64,000 nt of DNA from a virus, in the IMG/VR virus record IMGVR_UViG_3300023171_000009, positions 1-64,000 of that record. One strand, given 5' to 3'. A program made the translations under genes and the position numbers. Positions 1 through 58,414 of this stretch are shown piece after piece (within the stretch, counting starts at the first letter, position 1; each line of letters starts with the position of its first letter). The notes under the pieces are model-generated. The model did no database searches. It was not told where the DNA came from and was given only the letters and a program-made list of their open reading frames with translations.

Positions 1-5
1 CTGTT

Positions 6-101
6 TTAGCGCCCTCCATAGTCTTTTTCGTCCGGACTCAATGTCTCTTTAAATAACAAAGAAGATACGGCTTCATCAAGTTTTCCGTTATTGCGGCTCA
101 T
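6..101 (-). CDS. small hypothetical protein, 31 aa
   Basis: A short frame opens at the ATG at 101-99 (MSRNNGKLDEAV) and closes with TAA at 8-6. It lies downstream of the minor head protein gene, with a TGAAATCGTTGCA repeat about 30 nt upstream of its start. The protein is small, charged and has no recognisable domain. Support is position and a clean frame only. Confidence 0.45.
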   Translation of the reverse strand: MSRNNGKLDEAVSSLLFKETLSPDEKDYGGR

Positions 102-9419: not shown

Positions 9420-12287
9420 TTATCCTCTTGAAACACTCTTTCTTCTTTCTGCTTTTTGCCGTCCGGTTTTGCTGTCCACTTTTTCTTTTTCAGTCCAGCT
9501 TACTCTCTGTCCTAGTAAAACGGTATAAACTCCACAAATTGCATCCGCAACGTCCTTGGATGTAACTGGACCGCTTGACGGATGATCTATCTTACTAGGC
9601 TTCTTCTTGAAATCCGGAACTAACGCTAGCAACTCTTTAAATCCAATTTCATTGACTGGACAAGCCACACGTTTTTGATGAAGGGCGGATCTTAGTGCAT
9701 CATAAGTTACCAAATCTTCAACACTTATTTTATCGGTTTTAAAACCTTTACTGACAAGTATCTGCCTGGTGTCCACAGACTGGAAATTATCCATAGTTAC
9801 AATCTGGATAGGTATTTTCAAAACGTCTCTCAGATAATAAACCCAATGTCTTATGATATCGATATTAATTTGCCCGGACTTAGGTGGTTGAACGGCTAAT
9901 GCAAAATCATAAACGACATACGGAAAGGACTCTTCCACAAGCTTTAAATTTCCATCAGAATCAATAGTTGATGATTGTATAGGAACAACATCAAGGACGA
10001 ATCCGCATGCTATGCCTACCCGATCTTGTGATAAAGCCAAATCGATATGTAAAGCTCTTGGACATTCAGGCCATGGAGTGGCGTAATCATCAGTTACTTC
10101 CGGCATTCCATCATCAAATAAAGTTACAGTTTGTTTCCATGGAGAAATCATTCCTAGGGCTTTCCAAGCTTTAGCCATATTCCAAACGTCTTCACGATCT
10201 TTAAAGTAGACGTTAGAACTTCTAGCGCTTCTTCCGCCAAAATCGCGAAGCGCCCCCTCCGGGTCTGTTATAAAATGTTGTTTATATCTTACAGGAACTT
10301 CCATTATCTCAGCTCCTTTTCTAGGAGTTTCATCTGTGGAAAGTATACGCGTCATCGCCCTTTCATCCCCTACTTGGACTTTGAATTTTTGCTCTGTTTC
10401 CAATGTGGAGTCAGGATAAACTTCCCAATGCGCCTTCTCCCAAATAAATACCTTATGAGTGTCCTCAGTATTATCAGCAGCTAATACTTCTTTTTTTCTA
10501 ACTTCTGTAAAGTCTCCCGCATGTCCTTTGGAAGACACCATGCAAAACCTTCCTATATCGGAATCAGGGAAACGGCTTGCTCTACGGCGTATAAGCTTTT
10601 TATAAACTTCTTTAGCTTGGTCAAATTCCCCCGTCTCCTCTTTGGACCTTTTAGACTTCTCAACAAAAGTCATGAAATTTAACTCATCGACAATTGCCGA
10701 TATAACGTCTTCACCTAAAAATTTATCAGCACTTGCGGCACCATACATAATCATAAGATTATGAGGAAACAGCATCATTTCTTCTTTGCGACGATTATAT
10801 GGGAATTGTTCTTTAAAGTAAGGGCAGCGTTTTATGATGTTTTTTAGCTTTCCGTAAGTTACGCGCTTAGCCAATGAATCTGTTTTATTCAAACATAAAA
10901 CCATAACGGGAGAACCAGGAAGCATTCCTAGGTAGAGTTGAGGTTGTTTGAAAGTAGATAGGTTATATAGATCGTAAAGAGTAACAATTTGTGCTAGGGT
11001 CGTTTTTCCGCAGTTCCCTGTTATAAATATATTTCCCTCACGTCTTAACACTAGTAATCCGGTGTTTACCCTGAAACAATATTTAAAGCCATCTGTAGAT
11101 GGAACTCTTAATATATCTGACTTAGGAGTTGCAGCCATACTAGTTAGTGCATTCTTAGCCTTATGCACTATGTAATCTGTCTTACCGTCATCGCGAAGGT
11201 AACCACGCAATGAGGCTCTTTGCCCTAAAGTCGAAAAAGCATATTGTATAAAATCAGCCGAATCTTTATTTCGAGTATAAAAGGTTTGATCGGTTACAGA
11301 ACCATCCCATCTTAAGCATTCATCACATATAATAACTAATTGCTCAGAAGAAGCTTGCCAGAAAGTTTTAAACGATTTTACTCTTAAAGGAGCTTCGAAA
11401 TAAAATTTAACGTAACCCTCCGCTCCTTTATGCTCTTCCCAAGGGATGCCCGAGTCTTTCAATAGTATTCTTGCTCTATGTATCTTGTCTGTGCGTTTTA
11501 TGTTTACAGTGCATGCGTGACTCATCCTAGAAAAAGAACCATCTGCGATCACCATAACCATAACTCTTAAATCTTCATCGGACAATTCTAGCCCTATGTA
11601 ATCAGGCACTTTAAATGTAGTCTGAAAGGAGCCTCTGAATCCGTTAGTAGAAGCGTTGTGCATTAGGGCTACTTCCTTTGCTGACTTAAATAGCCAATTC
11701 TTTTTTGCCTTATAATAAACACGATGATCGTCGCATAGCATTTGGTCTATGCCATACTTAGTCTTAAAATGCCACATTTCAGCACAAGGCAATTTTATGT
11801 ATTCTTTAGGAATAACATAGTTTATCTCTTGTGTTACCGGGTCATATTCTGCAACCCTCTCTCCAGCATAGCTAGATATTTTTCTCCATCCATCAGGAGT
11901 TAAATATTCAGTCTTACTATCTACACAGCCGATCCCGCCCATTAACAGCGCCTCCATGTATCCACCGTCAGCAATACTTACAGCGGCCTCTAATACTTTT
12001 GCAAATACGCCTTGCTGTGGCGTAGTTTTATTTGACTTATCGGTTACAACGTCAAGCCCTAAAAAATCCTTGTCCCGGACAAACTGTTCCATTGAAACAG
12101 GGCGATGGCTTCTCCCGATAACACTAGCAAAATTCCCCTTCGCTTTTTTTAAATCATCTATGAAATCTGTAAACGTGGGTATGCTAAAATTAGGATTAGC
12201 TAATACAAGTTCTGATATTGCTTGATTAAGTATATCAGCAGGAGCGTTTGCTATAGCTAGTAATTGAGATTCCGTAAGGACTGCCAT
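9420..12287 (-). CDS. terL: terminase large subunit interrupted by an intein
   Basis: Precursor of about 955 aa starting MAVLTESQL; the in-frame ATG six codons upstream lies inside a 13-bp repeat and is rejected. The host protein is the phage packaging motor: Walker A is GGIG-CGKT (residues 117-120 joined to 426-429), Walker B is ISAIVDELNF (about 529-538), and the C-terminal RNase H-fold nuclease has HIDLALSQDRVGIACG, TMDNFQSVDTRQI and a final KDVADAICGVY. The intein occupies residues 121-425, exactly inside the P-loop. Without the intein the protein is about 650 aa. A leader with a terminator-like hairpin and an R1 dyad precede the start. Confidence 0.92.
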   Translation of the reverse strand: MAVLTESQLLAIANAPADILNQAISELVLANPNFSIPTFTDFIDDLKKAKGNFASVIGRSHRPVSMEQFVRDKDFLGLDVVTDKSNKTTPQQGVFAKVLEAAVSIADGGYMEALLMGGIGCVDSKTEYLTPDGWRKISSYAGERVAEYDPVTQEINYVIPKEYIKLPCAEMWHFKTKYGIDQMLCDDHRVYYKAKKNWLFKSAKEVALMHNASTNGFRGSFQTTFKVPDYIGLELSDEDLRVMVMVIADGSFSRMSHACTVNIKRTDKIHRARILLKDSGIPWEEHKGAEGYVKFYFEAPLRVKSFKTFWQASSEQLVIICDECLRWDGSVTDQTFYTRNKDSADFIQYAFSTLGQRASLRGYLRDDGKTDYIVHKAKNALTSMAATPKSDILRVPSTDGFKYCFRVNTGLLVLRREGNIFITGNCGKTTLAQIVTLYDLYNLSTFKQPQLYLGMLPGSPVMVLCLNKTDSLAKRVTYGKLKNIIKRCPYFKEQFPYNRRKEEMMLFPHNLMIMYGAASADKFLGEDVISAIVDELNFMTFVEKSKRSKEETGEFDQAKEVYKKLIRRRASRFPDSDIGRFCMVSSKGHAGDFTEVRKKEVLAADNTEDTHKVFIWEKAHWEVYPDSTLETEQKFKVQVGDERAMTRILSTDETPRKGAEIMEVPVRYKQHFITDPEGALRDFGGRSARSSNVYFKDREDVWNMAKAWKALGMISPWKQTVTLFDDGMPEVTDDYATPWPECPRALHIDLALSQDRVGIACGFVLDVVPIQSSTIDSDGNLKLVEESFPYVVYDFALAVQPPKSGQINIDIIRHWVYYLRDVLKIPIQIVTMDNFQSVDTRQILVSKGFKTDKISVEDLVTYDALRSALHQKRVACPVNEIGFKELLALVPDFKKKPSKIDHPSSGPVTSKDVADAICGVYTVLLGQRVSWTEKEKVDSKTGRQKAERRKSVSRG
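11013..11927 (-). mobile_element. intein with LAGLIDADG-like endonuclease in TerL
   Basis: 305 codons in frame. The first residue is Cys (CVDSKTEYLTPDGWRKI, block A), the end is IFITGN followed by Cys+1 of the extein (block G), and a DDHRVYY stretch looks like block B. Two dodecapeptide-like segments, MVMVIADGSF and ECLRWDGSV, suggest a degenerate or active DOD homing endonuclease. It splits the terminase P-loop GGIG/CGKT, a site commonly invaded by inteins because it is highly conserved. Confidence 0.9.
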
Positions 12288-12291
12288 AAAA

Positions 12292-12304
12292 TGAAATCGT
12301 TGCA
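12292..12304 (+). repeat. R1 dyad, exact, before terL start
   Basis: TGAAATCGTTGCA on plus; on the coding strand TGCAACGATTTCA ends 4 bases before the terL ATG and directly follows a hairpin T-run. Confidence 0.9.
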
Positions 12305-12340
12305 AAAAAGAAACCGGAGTTAGGAAAACCCCAACTCCGG
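12304..12340 (-). terminator. intrinsic terminator / attenuator upstream of terL
   Basis: On the minus strand CCGGAGTT (12340-12333) and AACTCCGG (12321-12314) form an 8-bp GC-rich stem with an 11-base loop, followed by TTTCTTTTTT. It lies between a sigma70-type promoter and the terL start, so readthrough or antitermination may control terL. Confidence 0.8.
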
Positions 12341-13791: not shown

Positions 13792-14037
13792 TTATCTAAT
13801 ATTTTTGCCTAAACTTCCGCAATTTGAATCCGAATCGACTTCTAAATACTTGATAAAGAAGTTCAGAAATTCATGCCCTAAATCACTTAAGATTTTGCCT
13901 GTTGCTTTACAGGAACCGCACCAACTCCAATCTTTTTGTTCTCTGCTCTTTCCAAGAAAAAACCCTCCCTTACCTTGGCATACAGGGCATTCTGTCTCTA
14001 AATGATCTAAATTAAGTTGTTTTTTTGCATCACTCAT
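13792..14037 (-). CDS. DnaJ-type zinc-finger protein, 81 aa
   Basis: The start MSDAKKQLNLDHLE was preferred to an upstream ATG because it avoids overlap with the preceding zinc-ribbon gene. Two CxxC knuckles are present: CPVCQGKGGFFLG and WCGSCKATGK, spaced like one DnaJ-type Zn-binding repeat pair. It probably binds zinc and protein or nucleic acid. No J domain is present. Confidence 0.6.
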   Translation of the reverse strand: MSDAKKQLNLDHLETECPVCQGKGGFFLGKSREQKDWSWCGSCKATGKILSDLGHEFLNFFIKYLEVDSDSNCGSLGKNIR

Positions 14038-14074
14038 AAAATTATACTTCGTTGTCTTTTTCCCACTCTTCAGT

Positions 14075-14251
14075 TTATTTGAAAGTTGGACCATCGAAAG
14101 TTACGCCGCAATATGGGCAAAACTTTGGTGGTTCAATTTCATAATGCCGCACATAAAAATTATTTTTACATATCGGGCAACTAATGGCACTAACATCAAA
14201 CTTCCGGCCTGTGGAGCTTGTGTACTCGAATTTTTCCGGCTCCCCGTCCAT
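14075..14251 (-). CDS. zinc-ribbon protein, 58 aa
   Basis: ATG at 14251 (MDGEPEKFEYTSSTGRKF) to TAA at 14075. Two CxxC pairs, CPICKNN and FCPYCGVTF, form a rubredoxin-like zinc ribbon. The overlapping longer frame that runs into the tRNA-like sequence has no such features and is not supported. The gene directly follows the tRNA-like element. Confidence 0.65.
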   Translation of the reverse strand: MDGEPEKFEYTSSTGRKFDVSAISCPICKNNFYVRHYEIEPPKFCPYCGVTFDGPTFK

Positions 14252-14275
14252 GGTCTAAAGTATTTAAAAATTGTT

Positions 14276-14360
14276 TGGCTGGCATGACAGGACTTGAACC
14301 TGCATAGCAATTAAGCTGACTTACGTTTAGTCTGGAATACCAATTCTCCTTCACATGCCA
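14276..14360 (-). tRNA. tRNA-like gene, class II shape, anticodon unclear
   Basis: On the minus strand TGGCATG (14360-14354) pairs with CATGCCA (14286-14280) as a 7-bp acceptor stem, followed by discriminator G and an encoded CCA. The T arm is GCAGG-TTCAAGT-CCTGT. A D-like hairpin (GGAG/TTCC) and a small variable arm (AGC/GCT) are present. The anticodon hairpin GACT-AAACGTA-AGTC has only 4 clear base pairs and lacks U33, so the isotype cannot be assigned and the gene may be degenerate. Confidence 0.6.
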
Positions 14361-14369
14361 AAAATTGTG

Positions 14370-14444
14370 CCACCCGCCTTTACTAAACTATATAGAACGT
14401 TCCACCGACTATATTGTTATTAAGTTTATTTTAAAGGCGGGTGG
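14370..14444. other. long nested inverted repeat, noncoding
   Basis: On plus, CCACCCGCCTTTA pairs with TAAAGGCGGGTGG (13 bp), TAAACT with AGTTTA, and ATATAG with CTATAT, all nested in one hairpin. Either strand could fold. It begins the 480-base gene-free stretch 14361-14840 and may be a terminator or a structured RNA. Confidence 0.65.
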
Positions 14445-14474
14445 TCTTTGTCTCTTCTTTCATATACCATTCAA

Positions 14475-14750
14475 TGTCTGTGATCCGCCACAGTGCTATT
14501 TTAAGGTAAGCTACATAGTGCTTGAAATTTTTCAGGCCAATTGTTATAAGTTGCGCGGCTTCCTTTACCGCAATGCTTTTTGCTTTCTAGGTTGGCCAGT
14601 GGTCGGGCTTCGCCCCGCTGCTATAAGAATGTCAACTACATAGTGCTTGAACGGTTAAGGGTTAAAAGCTACAAATATCTAAGTTTTTTCATAAGGGCTG
14701 TGTTCGTGCTACGCCACGATGCTATGAGTAACTACATTGGTTTAGAAGTT
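14475..14750 (-). repeat. array of three to four structured noncoding repeats
   Basis: Three units share, on the minus strand, a TTCAAGCACTATGTAG-like block, then about 15 bases, then TAGCA and a small hairpin (CTGTG-CACAG, GGGC-GCCC, CGTG-CACG). They lie near 14480-14530, 14600-14652 and 14697-14745. A degenerate fourth (AAGCATTGCGG) lies between the first two. No supported gene crosses them. Confidence 0.6.
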
Positions 14751-14809
14751 TAACCTTCTGGTTGAGGTTTAAAATGTATCCAAAAATGAGTTAAAGGCAA
14801 CTACTATTT

Positions 14810-14822
14810 TGCAACGATTTCA
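14810..14822 (-). repeat. R1 dyad, exact
   Basis: TGCAACGATTTCA on plus, about 20 bases downstream of the stop of the 124-aa gene. Confidence 0.9.
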
Positions 14823-14840
14823 AAAAGTCTCCTTAAATTC

Positions 14841-15215
14841 CTAAAAAAGATGCCTTACAGAACCATTTCTCACAAGTGCTTGTGCGAAGGTTAATCCGCC
14901 TCCATGGTCGTTTTTAATAACGCTGCAAGGGCCGTAGAGGCTCCATCCCTGCCTCATAAGAGAGGAAACTTTCTCGCTAAGCGGGGCGGAAAAATTACCA
15001 ACTACCATAGTGTATTCAGGTAACATAGGCGGGGCGTCTTTTAATGGGTGCGGAGAGGCTTTCGCTTTACCGACCATTAGCTTTAATACCACGTCTACAA
15101 ACTCTACAATATCCTCTTTAGTGTGCGTGTATTTACGGTCCCTAAGTTCTTGAAATACAATCAAAAGATCCTCCGCTTCTTGATCCGTTAGGTTATTTAA
15201 TCCTGGAGTGTCCAT
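14841..15215 (-). CDS. DUF1737-like protein, 124 aa
   Basis: The C-terminal half, EYTMVVGNFSAPLSEKVSSL through MRQGWSLYGPCSVI to FAQALVR, matches the pattern of the small DUF1737 domain (YxVV...L...V...L..GW...G......QA.V). That domain is common in phage and bacterial small proteins and its biochemical role is unknown. The N-terminal half is helical and acidic. Last gene before the noncoding array. Confidence 0.65.
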   Translation of the reverse strand: MDTPGLNNLTDQEAEDLLIVFQELRDRKYTHTKEDIVEFVDVVLKLMVGKAKASPHPLKDAPPMLPEYTMVVGNFSAPLSEKVSSLMRQGWSLYGPCSVIKNDHGGGLTFAQALVRNGSVRHLF

Positions 15216-15239
15216 GTTTTTATTAGGTTAGGTTGTTGA

Positions 15240-15581
15240 TTACTCTGATAAACCGCATTTTTCATCAATTATTTGGAAGCTTCTCTTAAGGTGCTCTATA
15301 ATTAAAGGCGATATCAATTTAAAGACGTGATAATCGACCGCTGTTTTAAAAATAGAATTAATTTCTTCATAAAACCGTTTATTCTCTTCCTCTATCTCTC
15401 TATAAAGGACGCCTTTTATCTCTTTCTTGTGCTCGTTAATCTTTAACTCTTTAAGATTAGGAATAACACAAACTTCATGGCCTTGCACAACAGAAGATGC
15501 ATAGATTGTTGTTTGGGTAGTGATCATTACTCCATCTGGACCACATGGAGTAGTGTTTGTCTGATAAACAAGCTTTTGCAT
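15240..15581 (-). CDS. hypothetical protein, 113 aa
   Basis: Begins MQKLVYQTNTTPCGPDGVMI and continues with a helical region rich in Lys and Glu (KEIKGVLYREIEEENKRFYE). No membrane segment. No family recognised; neighbours are a DUF1737-like gene and a pair of paralogous small genes. Confidence 0.55.
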   Translation of the reverse strand: MQKLVYQTNTTPCGPDGVMITTQTTIYASSVVQGHEVCVIPNLKELKINEHKKEIKGVLYREIEEENKRFYEEINSIFKTAVDYHVFKLISPLIIEHLKRSFQIIDEKCGLSE

Positions 15582-51742: not shown

Positions 51743-51886
51743 ATGAATAAAATTCCGCCTCCTTGGTAACTAAGTTACTAGGCTACACAAAAGGCTCAAT
51801 GGCTAACAAAACAACCTTTTACCTGCTACACAGATCGATTTTAGAAGAATCGACGGCAGGCACCAAAGAAGCGGAATTTTATTCAT
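51743..51886 (-). ncRNA. structured element closed by a 16-bp inverted repeat
   Basis: ATGAATAAAATTCCGC (51743-51758) and GCGGAATTTTATTCAT (51871-51886) are perfect inverted copies. Inside are further pairs GGTAAC/GTTAC, AAAAGG/CCTTTT and CCTGC/GCAGG with CGATT/AATCG, giving a four-helix multibranch layout. It is in the 5' region of the P-loop gene, so it could be a leader RNA. Confidence 0.55.
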
Positions 51887-57311: not shown

Positions 57312-57476
57312 TTACATTCCACGGGTAATTTTTTTAACAAGACCGCATTTATAACGATATACAAGGGCGGACCGGCCATTGTTCAACTTTACCATAAAAG
57401 CTTCAATGTCGCGAACCATACCTTTTGAAAGGATTGGGTAAGTTTGGCCGGAAGTTGTAGTGATTGTTTCGTTCAT
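57312..57476 (-). CDS. hypothetical protein, 54 aa (MNET family)
   Basis: Start MNETITTTSGQTYPILSKGM at 57476, just after a promoter module; the longer frame reads through the promoter. Shares its N-terminal MNET and leader with the 66-aa gene at 57834-58034. Beta-rich, soluble. Function unknown. Confidence 0.6.
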   Translation of the reverse strand: MNETITTTSGQTYPILSKGMVRDIEAFMVKLNNGRSALVYRYKCGLVKKITRGM

Positions 57477-57481
57477 GCGTG

Positions 57482-57510
57482 GATGATGGACCATAAAAAA
57501 GATTCTGCAA
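57482..57510 (-). promoter_or_regulatory. phage promoter module (TTGC-N17 class), leaderless
   Basis: Minus strand TTGCAG (57510-57505), 17 bases, ATCATC (57487-57482); ATG at 57476. R1 dyad upstream. Confidence 0.6.
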
Positions 57511-57528
57511 GCTGTTTTCTTCAGATTT

Positions 57529-57541
57529 TGCAATTATTTCA
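57529..57541 (-). repeat. R1 dyad, spacer variant, stop codon and promoter upstream element
   Basis: TGCAATTATTTCA on plus; TGA ends the 97-aa gene. Confidence 0.85.
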
Positions 57542-57832
57542 CTTTTTACAGTCTCCTTTTTCATGATGACTTACAGTCGTAAACCATATTTGCCCTCCGC
57601 AGTTGGTGCAATAGTCAACAGGAAAAAGAGGCGTTTCACCCGGATAACAAACAATTAGCTGCCCCGCTGTTTTGTTTTTATTTTTCTTCCGATTAAAATC
57701 TATTGATGTTGTTAAAGGTTCGGAAATTCTTATTCCATTAGGCATTTCATAAAGGTTACGAACAAAGCCAAATCCGTTTCCAATTCCTACAATTTGCTTT
57801 TCAGCAATCAATTTCATTTCACTAGTGGTCAT
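57539..57832 (-). CDS. hypothetical zinc-binding protein, 97 aa
   Basis: Begins MTTSEMKLIAEKQIVGIGNG. The C-terminus has DYCTNCGGQIWFTTV, a CxxC pair; a second pair is not clear. Coding is coupled to the R1 stop codon. Function unknown. Confidence 0.55.
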   Translation of the reverse strand: MTTSEMKLIAEKQIVGIGNGFGFVRNLYEMPNGIRISEPLTTSIDFNRKKNKNKTAGQLIVCYPGETPLFPVDYCTNCGGQIWFTTVSHHEKGDCKK

Positions 57833-57833
57833 A

Positions 57834-58034
57834 TCAATCTTTAAATTTAATACAAATTATCCGTTTTCCTGCTAATGCTAGATCGCGAGCAGCTTTAATT
57901 CCCTTACGGGTAATTACAGAGTAAGAAATGTTTTCATAATCGAAACTAACACAACCTGTATAGCTATCCACTATCGCTTTAGCTTTTTTTATAATTTCAG
58001 GAGTAAGGACTGGCAGAAGAGCGGTTTCGTTCAT
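57834..58034 (-). CDS. hypothetical protein, 66 aa (MNET family)
   Basis: Start MNETALLPVLTPEIIKKAKA at 58034, immediately after a promoter module. Helical N-terminus, beta C-terminus (GKRIICIKFKD). Function unknown. Confidence 0.6.
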   Translation of the reverse strand: MNETALLPVLTPEIIKKAKAIVDSYTGCVSFDYENISYSVITRKGIKAARDLALAGKRIICIKFKD

Positions 58035-58039
58035 GGGAG

Positions 58040-58068
58040 GACAATGGACCATAAAAAAGCATTCGCAA
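58040..58068 (-). promoter_or_regulatory. phage promoter module (TTGC-N17 class), leaderless
   Basis: Minus strand TTGCGA (58068-58063), 17 bases, ATTGTC (58045-58040); ATG at 58034. AAAAAAGGC lies before the -35 and an R1 dyad at 58086-58098. Confidence 0.65.
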
Positions 58069-58085
58069 GCCTTTTTTCGAAATTT

Positions 58086-58098
58086 TGCAATTATTTCA
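58086..58098 (-). repeat. R1 dyad, spacer variant, supplies stop codon
   Basis: TGCAATTATTTCA on plus; the coding strand TGAAATAA gives TAA as the stop of the 80-aa gene. Confidence 0.8.
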
Positions 58099-58333
58099 AT
58101 TTTTCTAAAATATCATTGTTTGAATCTGTAGAAGGGTAGACTCTTCCGCTTTTGTGCCAACGATCACGGATAGGGGTTTCTTCTCCCGTATCATAAAAAC
58201 CGCATCGGTCACAGCCTCCACCTTGTTGGATATGAGTAATCACAACCGTTTCTCCGCAGCGAGTCCGATATTTACCCGGCCCATCAATAATAACTGGAAG
58301 CGTAACAGAATAGTAATGAGGGAGAATTTTCAT
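58091..58333 (-). CDS. zinc-finger-like hypothetical protein, 80 aa
   Basis: Begins MKILPHYYSVTLPVIIDGPG. CGETVVITHIQQGGGCDRCG gives C ... CxxC, a probable metal site. Ends in ILEKLK. Preceded by a promoter module with the ATCCTTCCAAA leader. Confidence 0.6.
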   Translation of the reverse strand: MKILPHYYSVTLPVIIDGPGKYRTRCGETVVITHIQQGGGCDRCGFYDTGEETPIRDRWHKSGRVYPSTDSNNDILEKLK

Positions 58334-58372
58334 TTTTGGAAGGATTGGGTTACCGCTTGTTTGCGATGTGGT

Positions 58373-58401
58373 GACAATGGGCGATAAAAAACACTATGCA
58401 A
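58373..58401 (-). promoter_or_regulatory. phage promoter module (TTGC-N17 class)
   Basis: Minus strand TTGCAT (58401-58396), 17 bases, ATTGTC (58378-58373); ATG at 58333 after a leader with ATCCTTCCAAA. Confidence 0.6.
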
Positions 58402-58414
58402 GCGATTTTTCGTC

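What the first reader, a model, noticed from the sequence alone, without database searches (positions are those of the whole stretch)
14361..14840. 480-bp gene-free stretch with a nested hairpin and structured repeats
After the tRNA-like gene there is a 13-bp inverted repeat enclosing two further stems, then three units sharing TTCAAGCACTATGTAG-like and TAGCA-hairpin blocks, spaced about 120 and 95 bases, plus a degenerate fourth. The hairpin loops differ while stems are kept, which suggests selection for RNA structure. This could be a small RNA array, an origin region or a regulatory RNA.
Basis: seen in the sequence. Interest (0 to 1): 0.6.

Follow-up and report, generated by a model that had tools for sequence, protein, structure and literature searches.

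The report
Three hairpin repeats beside phage tRNA
In the longest gene-free stretch of a phage with no close known relative, just ahead of a tRNA-like gene, there is a strong stem-loop and three diverged copies of a small hairpin module whose stems changed in step while the loops stayed the same; it is a real element, probably an RNA, but its job is unknown and no relative was found to test it.

Summary
On the gene-bearing (minus) strand, 14470-14748 holds three copies of one ~58-nt module: a block (TTCAAGCACTATGTAG in two copies, ATGTAG in all), a 6-11-nt spacer, ATAGCA, then a 4-5-bp hairpin. Next come a nested 75-nt stem-loop (14370-14444) and a tRNA-like gene with encoded CCA (14276-14360). 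The 16-nt repeat occurs in 0 of 1000 shuffles. A model of the module finds only these three copies, so there is no fourth. The array is no more stable than shuffled sequence (z about 0); only the stem-loop is (z about -7). The genome (~98.3 kb, apparently complete and circular) is an orphan myovirus, so covariation across relatives could not be tested. No Rfam family, IMG/VR, INPHARED or plasmid relative was found. N4-type promoters, attP, IS200/REP elements and a coding origin lack support. Best guess: a noncoding RNA carrying three copies of a recognition module, perhaps a protein decoy or scaffold. Confidence is low. A separate, possibly stronger observation: 75 copies of a 13-bp repeat, regularly spaced over the genome.

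The parts
14470..14527 (-). unit C: TTCAAGCACTATGTAG - 11 nt - ATAGCA - hairpin CTGTG(GCGGAT)CACAG (hairpin 14478-14493)
   Evidence: model match 72.2 bits; hairpin pair probability 0.98-0.99 within the full 480-nt fold
14595..14652 (-). unit B: TTCAAGCACTATGTAG - 11 nt - ATAGCA - hairpin CGGG(GCGAAG)CCCG (hairpin 14604-14617)
   Evidence: model match 77.9 bits; two alternative registers of the hairpin with pair probabilities 0.36-0.40 and 0.45-0.47
14696..14748 (-). unit A, the most diverged copy: TCTAAACCAATGTAG - 6 nt - ATAGCA - hairpin TCGTG(GCGTAG)CACGA (hairpin 14704-14719)
   Evidence: model match 63.8 bits; hairpin pair probability 0.69-0.76
14528..14594 (-). inter-unit stretch between B and C with a possible GGCCAA/TTGGCC stem and inner TTGCGG/CCGCGCAA stem
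   Evidence: fold of 14527-14605, z -0.9: not above chance
14370..14444 (-). 75-nt nested stem-loop: 13-bp perfect outer stem CCACCCGCCTTTA/TAAAGGCGGGTGG with two inner 6-bp stems
   Evidence: z about -7
14276..14360 (-). tRNA-like gene: 7-bp acceptor stem, D arm, T arm and encoded CCA; anticodon loop AAACGTA (A instead of U at position 33), variable arm longer than usual
   Evidence: Rfam tRNA 28.4 bits, gathering 29, E 0.002; ARAGORN finds nothing; the CCA end and anticodon loop are read from the sequence
14810..14822 (-). one copy of the genome-wide dispersed repeat TGAAATCGTTGCA, upstream of unit A; probably a separate feature

Best explanation
The stretch is a noncoding part of the phage's minus-strand transcript, lying between the DUF1737 gene and a tRNA-like gene. 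It carries three diverged copies of one recognition module: a conserved single-stranded block, a spacer, ATAGCA, and a small hairpin with a GCGNAN loop. The modules are followed by a strong stem-loop that probably protects or helps process the RNA next to the tRNA 5' end. The three modules most likely each bind the same partner, a host or phage protein, so that the RNA acts as a multi-site decoy or scaffold, in the general manner of CsrB-like RNAs. Shown here: the repeat units, the conserved loops with co-varying stems, the strong stem-loop, the lack of coding capacity and the position next to the tRNA-like gene. Inferred: that it is transcribed as RNA, that the modules bind a protein, and the role of the stem-loop.
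For: Three copies with blocks of perfect conservation (ATGTAG, ATAGCA, G-GCG-N-A-N-C) separated by diverged spacers. Three of five hairpin pairs changed on both sides; sliding the pairing by 1-3 columns drops pairing from 93% to 27-47%. The hairpins form in the full-length RNA ensemble. No ORF of 20 aa or more on the gene strand inside it; longest gap between genes in the window. A 75-nt stem-loop with z about -7 lies directly 5' of a tRNA-like gene with encoded CCA. The larger ORFs of the record are on the minus strand, so transcription through the region in that direction is expected.
Against: The units and the array as a whole are no more stable than shuffled sequence (z between -0.4 and 1.7). 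No promoter beyond chance and no minus-strand terminator was found. No relatives, so no covariation outside this one genome. Compensatory changes among three copies of one genome could also come from palindrome correction during replication. No partner protein is identified and there is no expression evidence.
Confidence: 0.35

Rival explanations
1. A DNA-level site: the three repeats are a nucleoprotein assembly site (terminase packaging site like cosB or pac, or a replication site), and the hairpins act when the DNA is single-stranded or extruded as cruciforms.
For: The array lies about 2 kb upstream of the large terminase gene (9420-12305). Two of the three hairpins contain GCGNAGC, and the GNA-type loop with a sheared G:A pair is the stable DNA hairpin fold described for N4 promoters (PMC4496689). 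CTATGTAG is a near-palindrome.
Against: A double-stranded protein site does not explain compensatory stem changes with a conserved loop. DNA folding of the units is not above shuffles. No small terminase was identified and no skew switch is seen. The larger stem-loop and tRNA-like gene are not explained.
Confidence: 0.2
2. Recent tandem duplication in a neutral spacer: three copies arose by duplication, and the stems stay paired through template-switching correction of quasi-palindromes; no function.
For: Unique to this genome in everything searched; unequal spacing; copy A is eroded in its first block; no energetic signal.
Against: Divergence is patchy, with several blocks invariant in all three copies and spacers freely changed. 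Phages rarely keep the longest gap of the genome without use. Random palindrome correction does not explain the conserved blocks outside the hairpin.
Confidence: 0.25
3. A new large structured phage RNA of the GOLLD/ROOL type, in which the three modules are sub-domains of one folded, possibly oligomeric RNA.
For: GOLLD and ROOL are encoded in phages and prophages, often near tRNA islands, with unknown function (PMC12286853); here a ~480-nt noncoding stretch abuts a tRNA-like gene.
Against: No Rfam match, GOLLD and ROOL included, even at E up to 5. The global fold is only z -2.1, and the array alone about 0.
Confidence: 0.12
4. Three hairpin promoters of the N4 virion-RNA-polymerase type.
For: N4 has three early promoters with conserved sequence from -17 to +1 and inverted repeats around a GC-rich heptamer (PMC4496689). 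Here there are three short hairpins with a G-N-A loop and a conserved flank.
Against: No giant RNA polymerase: the longest ORF outside the window is 1157 aa, belongs to PHROG family 877 and resembles phage particle/VrlC proteins. No match to PF00940 (its control did not ring, so this is weak) and no polymerase among the unassigned large proteins. Copy C breaks the C-GNA-G closure. The template-strand rule would direct transcription against all genes.
Confidence: 0.03

Closest known systems
GOLLD and ROOL RNAs (phage/prophage large ornate RNAs, Rfam)
   Same: long phage noncoding stretch next to a tRNA gene, several hairpins, unknown function
   Different: no covariance-model match at E up to 5; shorter; low overall folding excess; built of three repeated small modules
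CsrB/RsmZ-type multi-hairpin decoy RNAs
   Same: repeated small hairpins with a conserved loop and variable stems
   Different: the loop is GCGNAN, not the GGA motif of CsrA/RsmE sites (recalled; only one of three loops has GGA); partner unknown; only three modules
Phage lambda nut sites (boxA plus boxB hairpin)
   Same: conserved linear block, spacer, then a ~5-bp hairpin
   Different: no sequence match known to me; three tandem copies close together just upstream of a tRNA-like gene; no antiterminator identified
N4 virion RNA polymerase promoters
   Same: three copies, 4-5-bp hairpins, G-N-A loop in two of three
   Different: no virion RNA polymerase in the genome; one loop does not close; direction wrong
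Lambda cosB R sites / pac sites
   Same: three direct 16-bp-class repeats near the terminase gene
   Different: co-varying hairpins with conserved loops; ~2 kb from terL; no small terminase or ends mapped

Membership tests
GOLLD / ROOL | match to the Rfam covariance model | tested here: not met
   no hit at gathering or at E up to 5 over 13800-15300
GOLLD / ROOL | encoded next to a phage tRNA | tested here: met
   tRNA-like gene 14276-14360, Rfam 28.4 bits, just under gathering 29
N4-type vRNAP promoters | phage encodes a giant virion RNA polymerase | tested here: not met
   longest ORF found outside the window 1157 aa, of another family
N4-type vRNAP promoters | GNA triloop closed by C-G in every copy | tested here: not met
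   true in A and B; C has C-GGA-T
attP with arm-type sites | phage integrase gene | tested here: not met
   PF00589 and PF00239 absent from the record; controls ring
IS200/IS605 or REP/RAYT elements | Y1 transposase (PF01797) in the genome | tested here: not met
   no match; control rings
Type III toxin-antitoxin RNA repeats | ToxN-like toxin gene adjacent and 34-50-nt repeats | tested here: inconclusive
   repeat pitch is 101 and 125 bp, unlike ToxI (recalled); the genes tested on either side gave no toxin family
CsrB-like decoy RNA | conserved GGA in the hairpin loops | tested here: not met
   only unit C has GGA
CsrB-like decoy RNA | binds a protein at several sites | not testable with these tools
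   needs a binding assay; the claim that it works like a decoy is not excluded
Structured RNA with covariation across relatives | stem pairs kept by double changes in homologous loci | not testable with these tools
   no homologous locus found; within-genome copies only

The most novel reading that the evidence does not exclude
A previously undescribed phage RNA (or single-stranded DNA) element made of repeated two-part modules, conserved block plus GCGNAN hairpin, that binds a host or phage factor and sits in the leader of a phage tRNA with an unusual anticodon loop.
Probability: 0.3. Interest if true: 0.6.

Novelty: new variant of a known kind. Interest (0 to 1): 0.38.

Why it matters
If it is a functional RNA, it adds an undescribed design to the small set of phage noncoding RNAs found beside tRNA genes, with a clear repeated module (block, ATAGCA, GCGNAN hairpin) that can be searched for once close relatives are sequenced and that gives a direct handle on its binding partner. 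If it is a neutral duplication it is a caution: two strong visual cues, a long inverted repeat and exact 16-mers, do not make an array more structured than shuffled sequence.

Tried and rejected
Exact scans of IMG/VR for TTCAAGCACTATGTAG, for ATGTAG-gap-ATAGCA-hairpin, for two tandem hairpins and for one arm of the inverted repeat. The first gave six stretches; L004 was checked and is coding, and the rest give at best weak model scores around the seeding 16-mer. The second gave one hit inside a gene. The third gave 99 stretches, 80 listed; one in the loci held keeps a pairing hairpin, single and in unrelated GC-rich sequence. The fourth gave six without a matching arm; L253 has a chance CCACCCGC. 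Terminase and tail-protein relatives are at most 44% and 37% identical and none has the module (only weak 15.8-bit hits; the one in L041 lies within its terminase match). Genome contigs gave no relative. INPHARED gave only the tRNA 3' part; plasmids nothing. N4 promoters, attP, IS200/REP and coding origin rejected as listed. A second hairpin in the units around CTATGTA was considered, but its pairing register differs between copies, so it was not claimed. The dispersed 13-mer was used to look for relatives: 18 single-copy stretches, about the number I expect by chance.

Full report
What was checked. The finding covers 14361-14840 of a 64-kb window. The window is part of a 98,476-base virus record. 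The record's two ends share an exact overlap of about 126 bases, so the genome is probably complete and circularly assembled at about 98.3 kb. The larger ORFs run on the minus strand. Gene content is that of a contractile-tailed phage: tail sheath, P2 GpU-like tail protein, portal, terminase, its own DNA polymerase, helicase, primase, RecA and RuvC. It has no close relative in the collections searched: terminase relatives reach 44% identity over the best-matching long segment and those of a large tail-region protein 37%.

The observation. The stretch is the longest gap between minus-strand ORFs in the window (486 bp) and has no minus-strand ORF of 20 aa or more inside 14374-14840. A 13-bp perfect inverted repeat (14370-14382/14432-14444) encloses two 6-bp stems; this 75-nt stem-loop folds far better than shuffles on either strand (z -7.2 and -6.6). 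Three units share TTCAAGCACTATGTAG (two exact, one eroded to ATGTAG), a spacer of 11, 11 or 6 nt, ATAGCA and a small hairpin. The 16-nt repeat is not reached in 1000 dinucleotide shuffles; a 13-bp inverted repeat is reached in 2. In random 480-bp windows of the same sequence a 16-nt repeat occurs in 2.4% and a 13-bp inverted repeat in 1.9%. A covariance model of the three units finds them with E 1e-14 to 1e-17 and nothing else in the window or record, so the 'degenerate fourth' is not supported.

Structure. The hairpins are TCGTG(GCGTAG)CACGA, CGGG(GCGAAG)CCCG and CTGTG(GCGGAT)CACAG. The loop GCGNAN is conserved; the stem letters differ. Of five aligned pairs, two never vary and three change on both sides; 14 of 15 cells pair, against 75% in shuffles, with 17 of 500 shuffles doing as well; sliding the partner columns destroys pairing. 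With three copies of one genome this is limited evidence. It does not decide between RNA and single-stranded DNA, since all pairs are Watson-Crick. Each unit, and the whole array without the inverted repeat, has folding energy like shuffled sequence as RNA, and the units do so as DNA. Within the whole fold, the hairpins of A and C form with probability about 0.7 and 0.98, and that of B in two registers of about 0.4 each.

Surroundings. In the direction of transcription the order is: DUF1737 gene (14841-15215), one copy of a dispersed 13-bp repeat, units A, B and C, the stem-loop, then nine bases later a tRNA-like gene (14276-14360). The tRNA-like gene scores 28.4 bits against Rfam tRNA (gathering 29) and is missed by ARAGORN. 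Read directly, it has an intact 7-bp acceptor stem, an encoded CCA, a longer variable arm and an anticodon loop AAACGTA in which the nearly universal U33 is A. Two zinc-ribbon-like ORFs follow.

Relatives. None carry the element: IMG/VR pattern scans, the model over 64 loci and 37 whole viral records, INPHARED, plasmids and genome contigs by terminase. The tools warn that records very near the window's own genome may be left out. The test that would settle selection on structure therefore remains open.

Mechanism. The pattern, short invariant blocks and loops with freely changing spacers and co-varying stems, repeated three times, is what one expects of repeated recognition modules. Because the region is noncoding, lies between co-directional genes and abuts a tRNA-like gene, I favour an RNA read from the minus strand in which each module binds the same partner, with the stem-loop marking or protecting the RNA next to the tRNA. 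Transcription, binding and the role of the stem-loop are inference. The main rivals are a neutral duplication and a DNA site near the terminase gene. N4-like hairpin promoters were considered because two of the loops have the C-GNA-G form that PMC4496689 describes for N4; they are disfavoured because no giant RNA polymerase is encoded. attP and IS200/REP readings fail because integrase, resolvase and Y1 transposase are absent while controls ring. GOLLD and ROOL are the nearest known analogues by setting (PMC12286853) but not by sequence or model.

Verdict. A real, well-described but orphan element. Its function is open, and membership of every known family tested was either not met or not testable.

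Noticed in passing
whole virus record; window examples 131, 12292, 14810, 27293, 47549, 59114: A 13-bp repeat TGAAATCGTTGCA (consensus TGMAATNRTTGCA, imperfect dyad, A-rich flanks) occurs 75 times at up to 2 mismatches (42 exact) in 98 kb on both strands, against about 2 expected per 64 kb. Spacing is regular: mean 1329 bp, CV 0.52 against 0.99 at random, 0 of 2000 random sets as even. In the window 22 of 51 copies lie outside ORFs, which make up 92.5% of the sequence. It resembles stoperator or SPBRE-type repressor sites (PMC9283540, PMC10516654) but is more numerous than I recall for those, and evenly spread.
   Followed up: partly
51743-51886 (-): A second strongly structured gene-free stretch: 25-bp nearly perfect inverted repeat enclosing several hairpins, RNA fold z -7.2, no Rfam match. 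It lies in the second-longest gene gap of the window.
   Followed up: partly
14276-14360 (-): tRNA-like gene with encoded CCA but A at position 33 of the anticodon loop (AAACGTA) and a longer variable arm; missed by ARAGORN, just below Rfam's cut-off.
   Followed up: partly
9420-12305 (-): The 961-aa terminase matches two different groups: residues 116-438 match PhoH-like or other viral proteins, residues 426-960 match Vibrio phage large terminases; possibly an unusual layout or fusion.
   Followed up: no
window 1-20 and record end: About 126 bases at the record's end repeat window bases about 22-147 exactly, while the first ~21 bases differ: a circular assembly with a frayed end. The tool lists this record among virus records without giving a completeness.
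   Followed up: partly
57466-58409 (+): Four related ~53-nt repeats (D5, 64-81% identity) within 1.6 kb, overlapping small ORFs.
   Followed up: no
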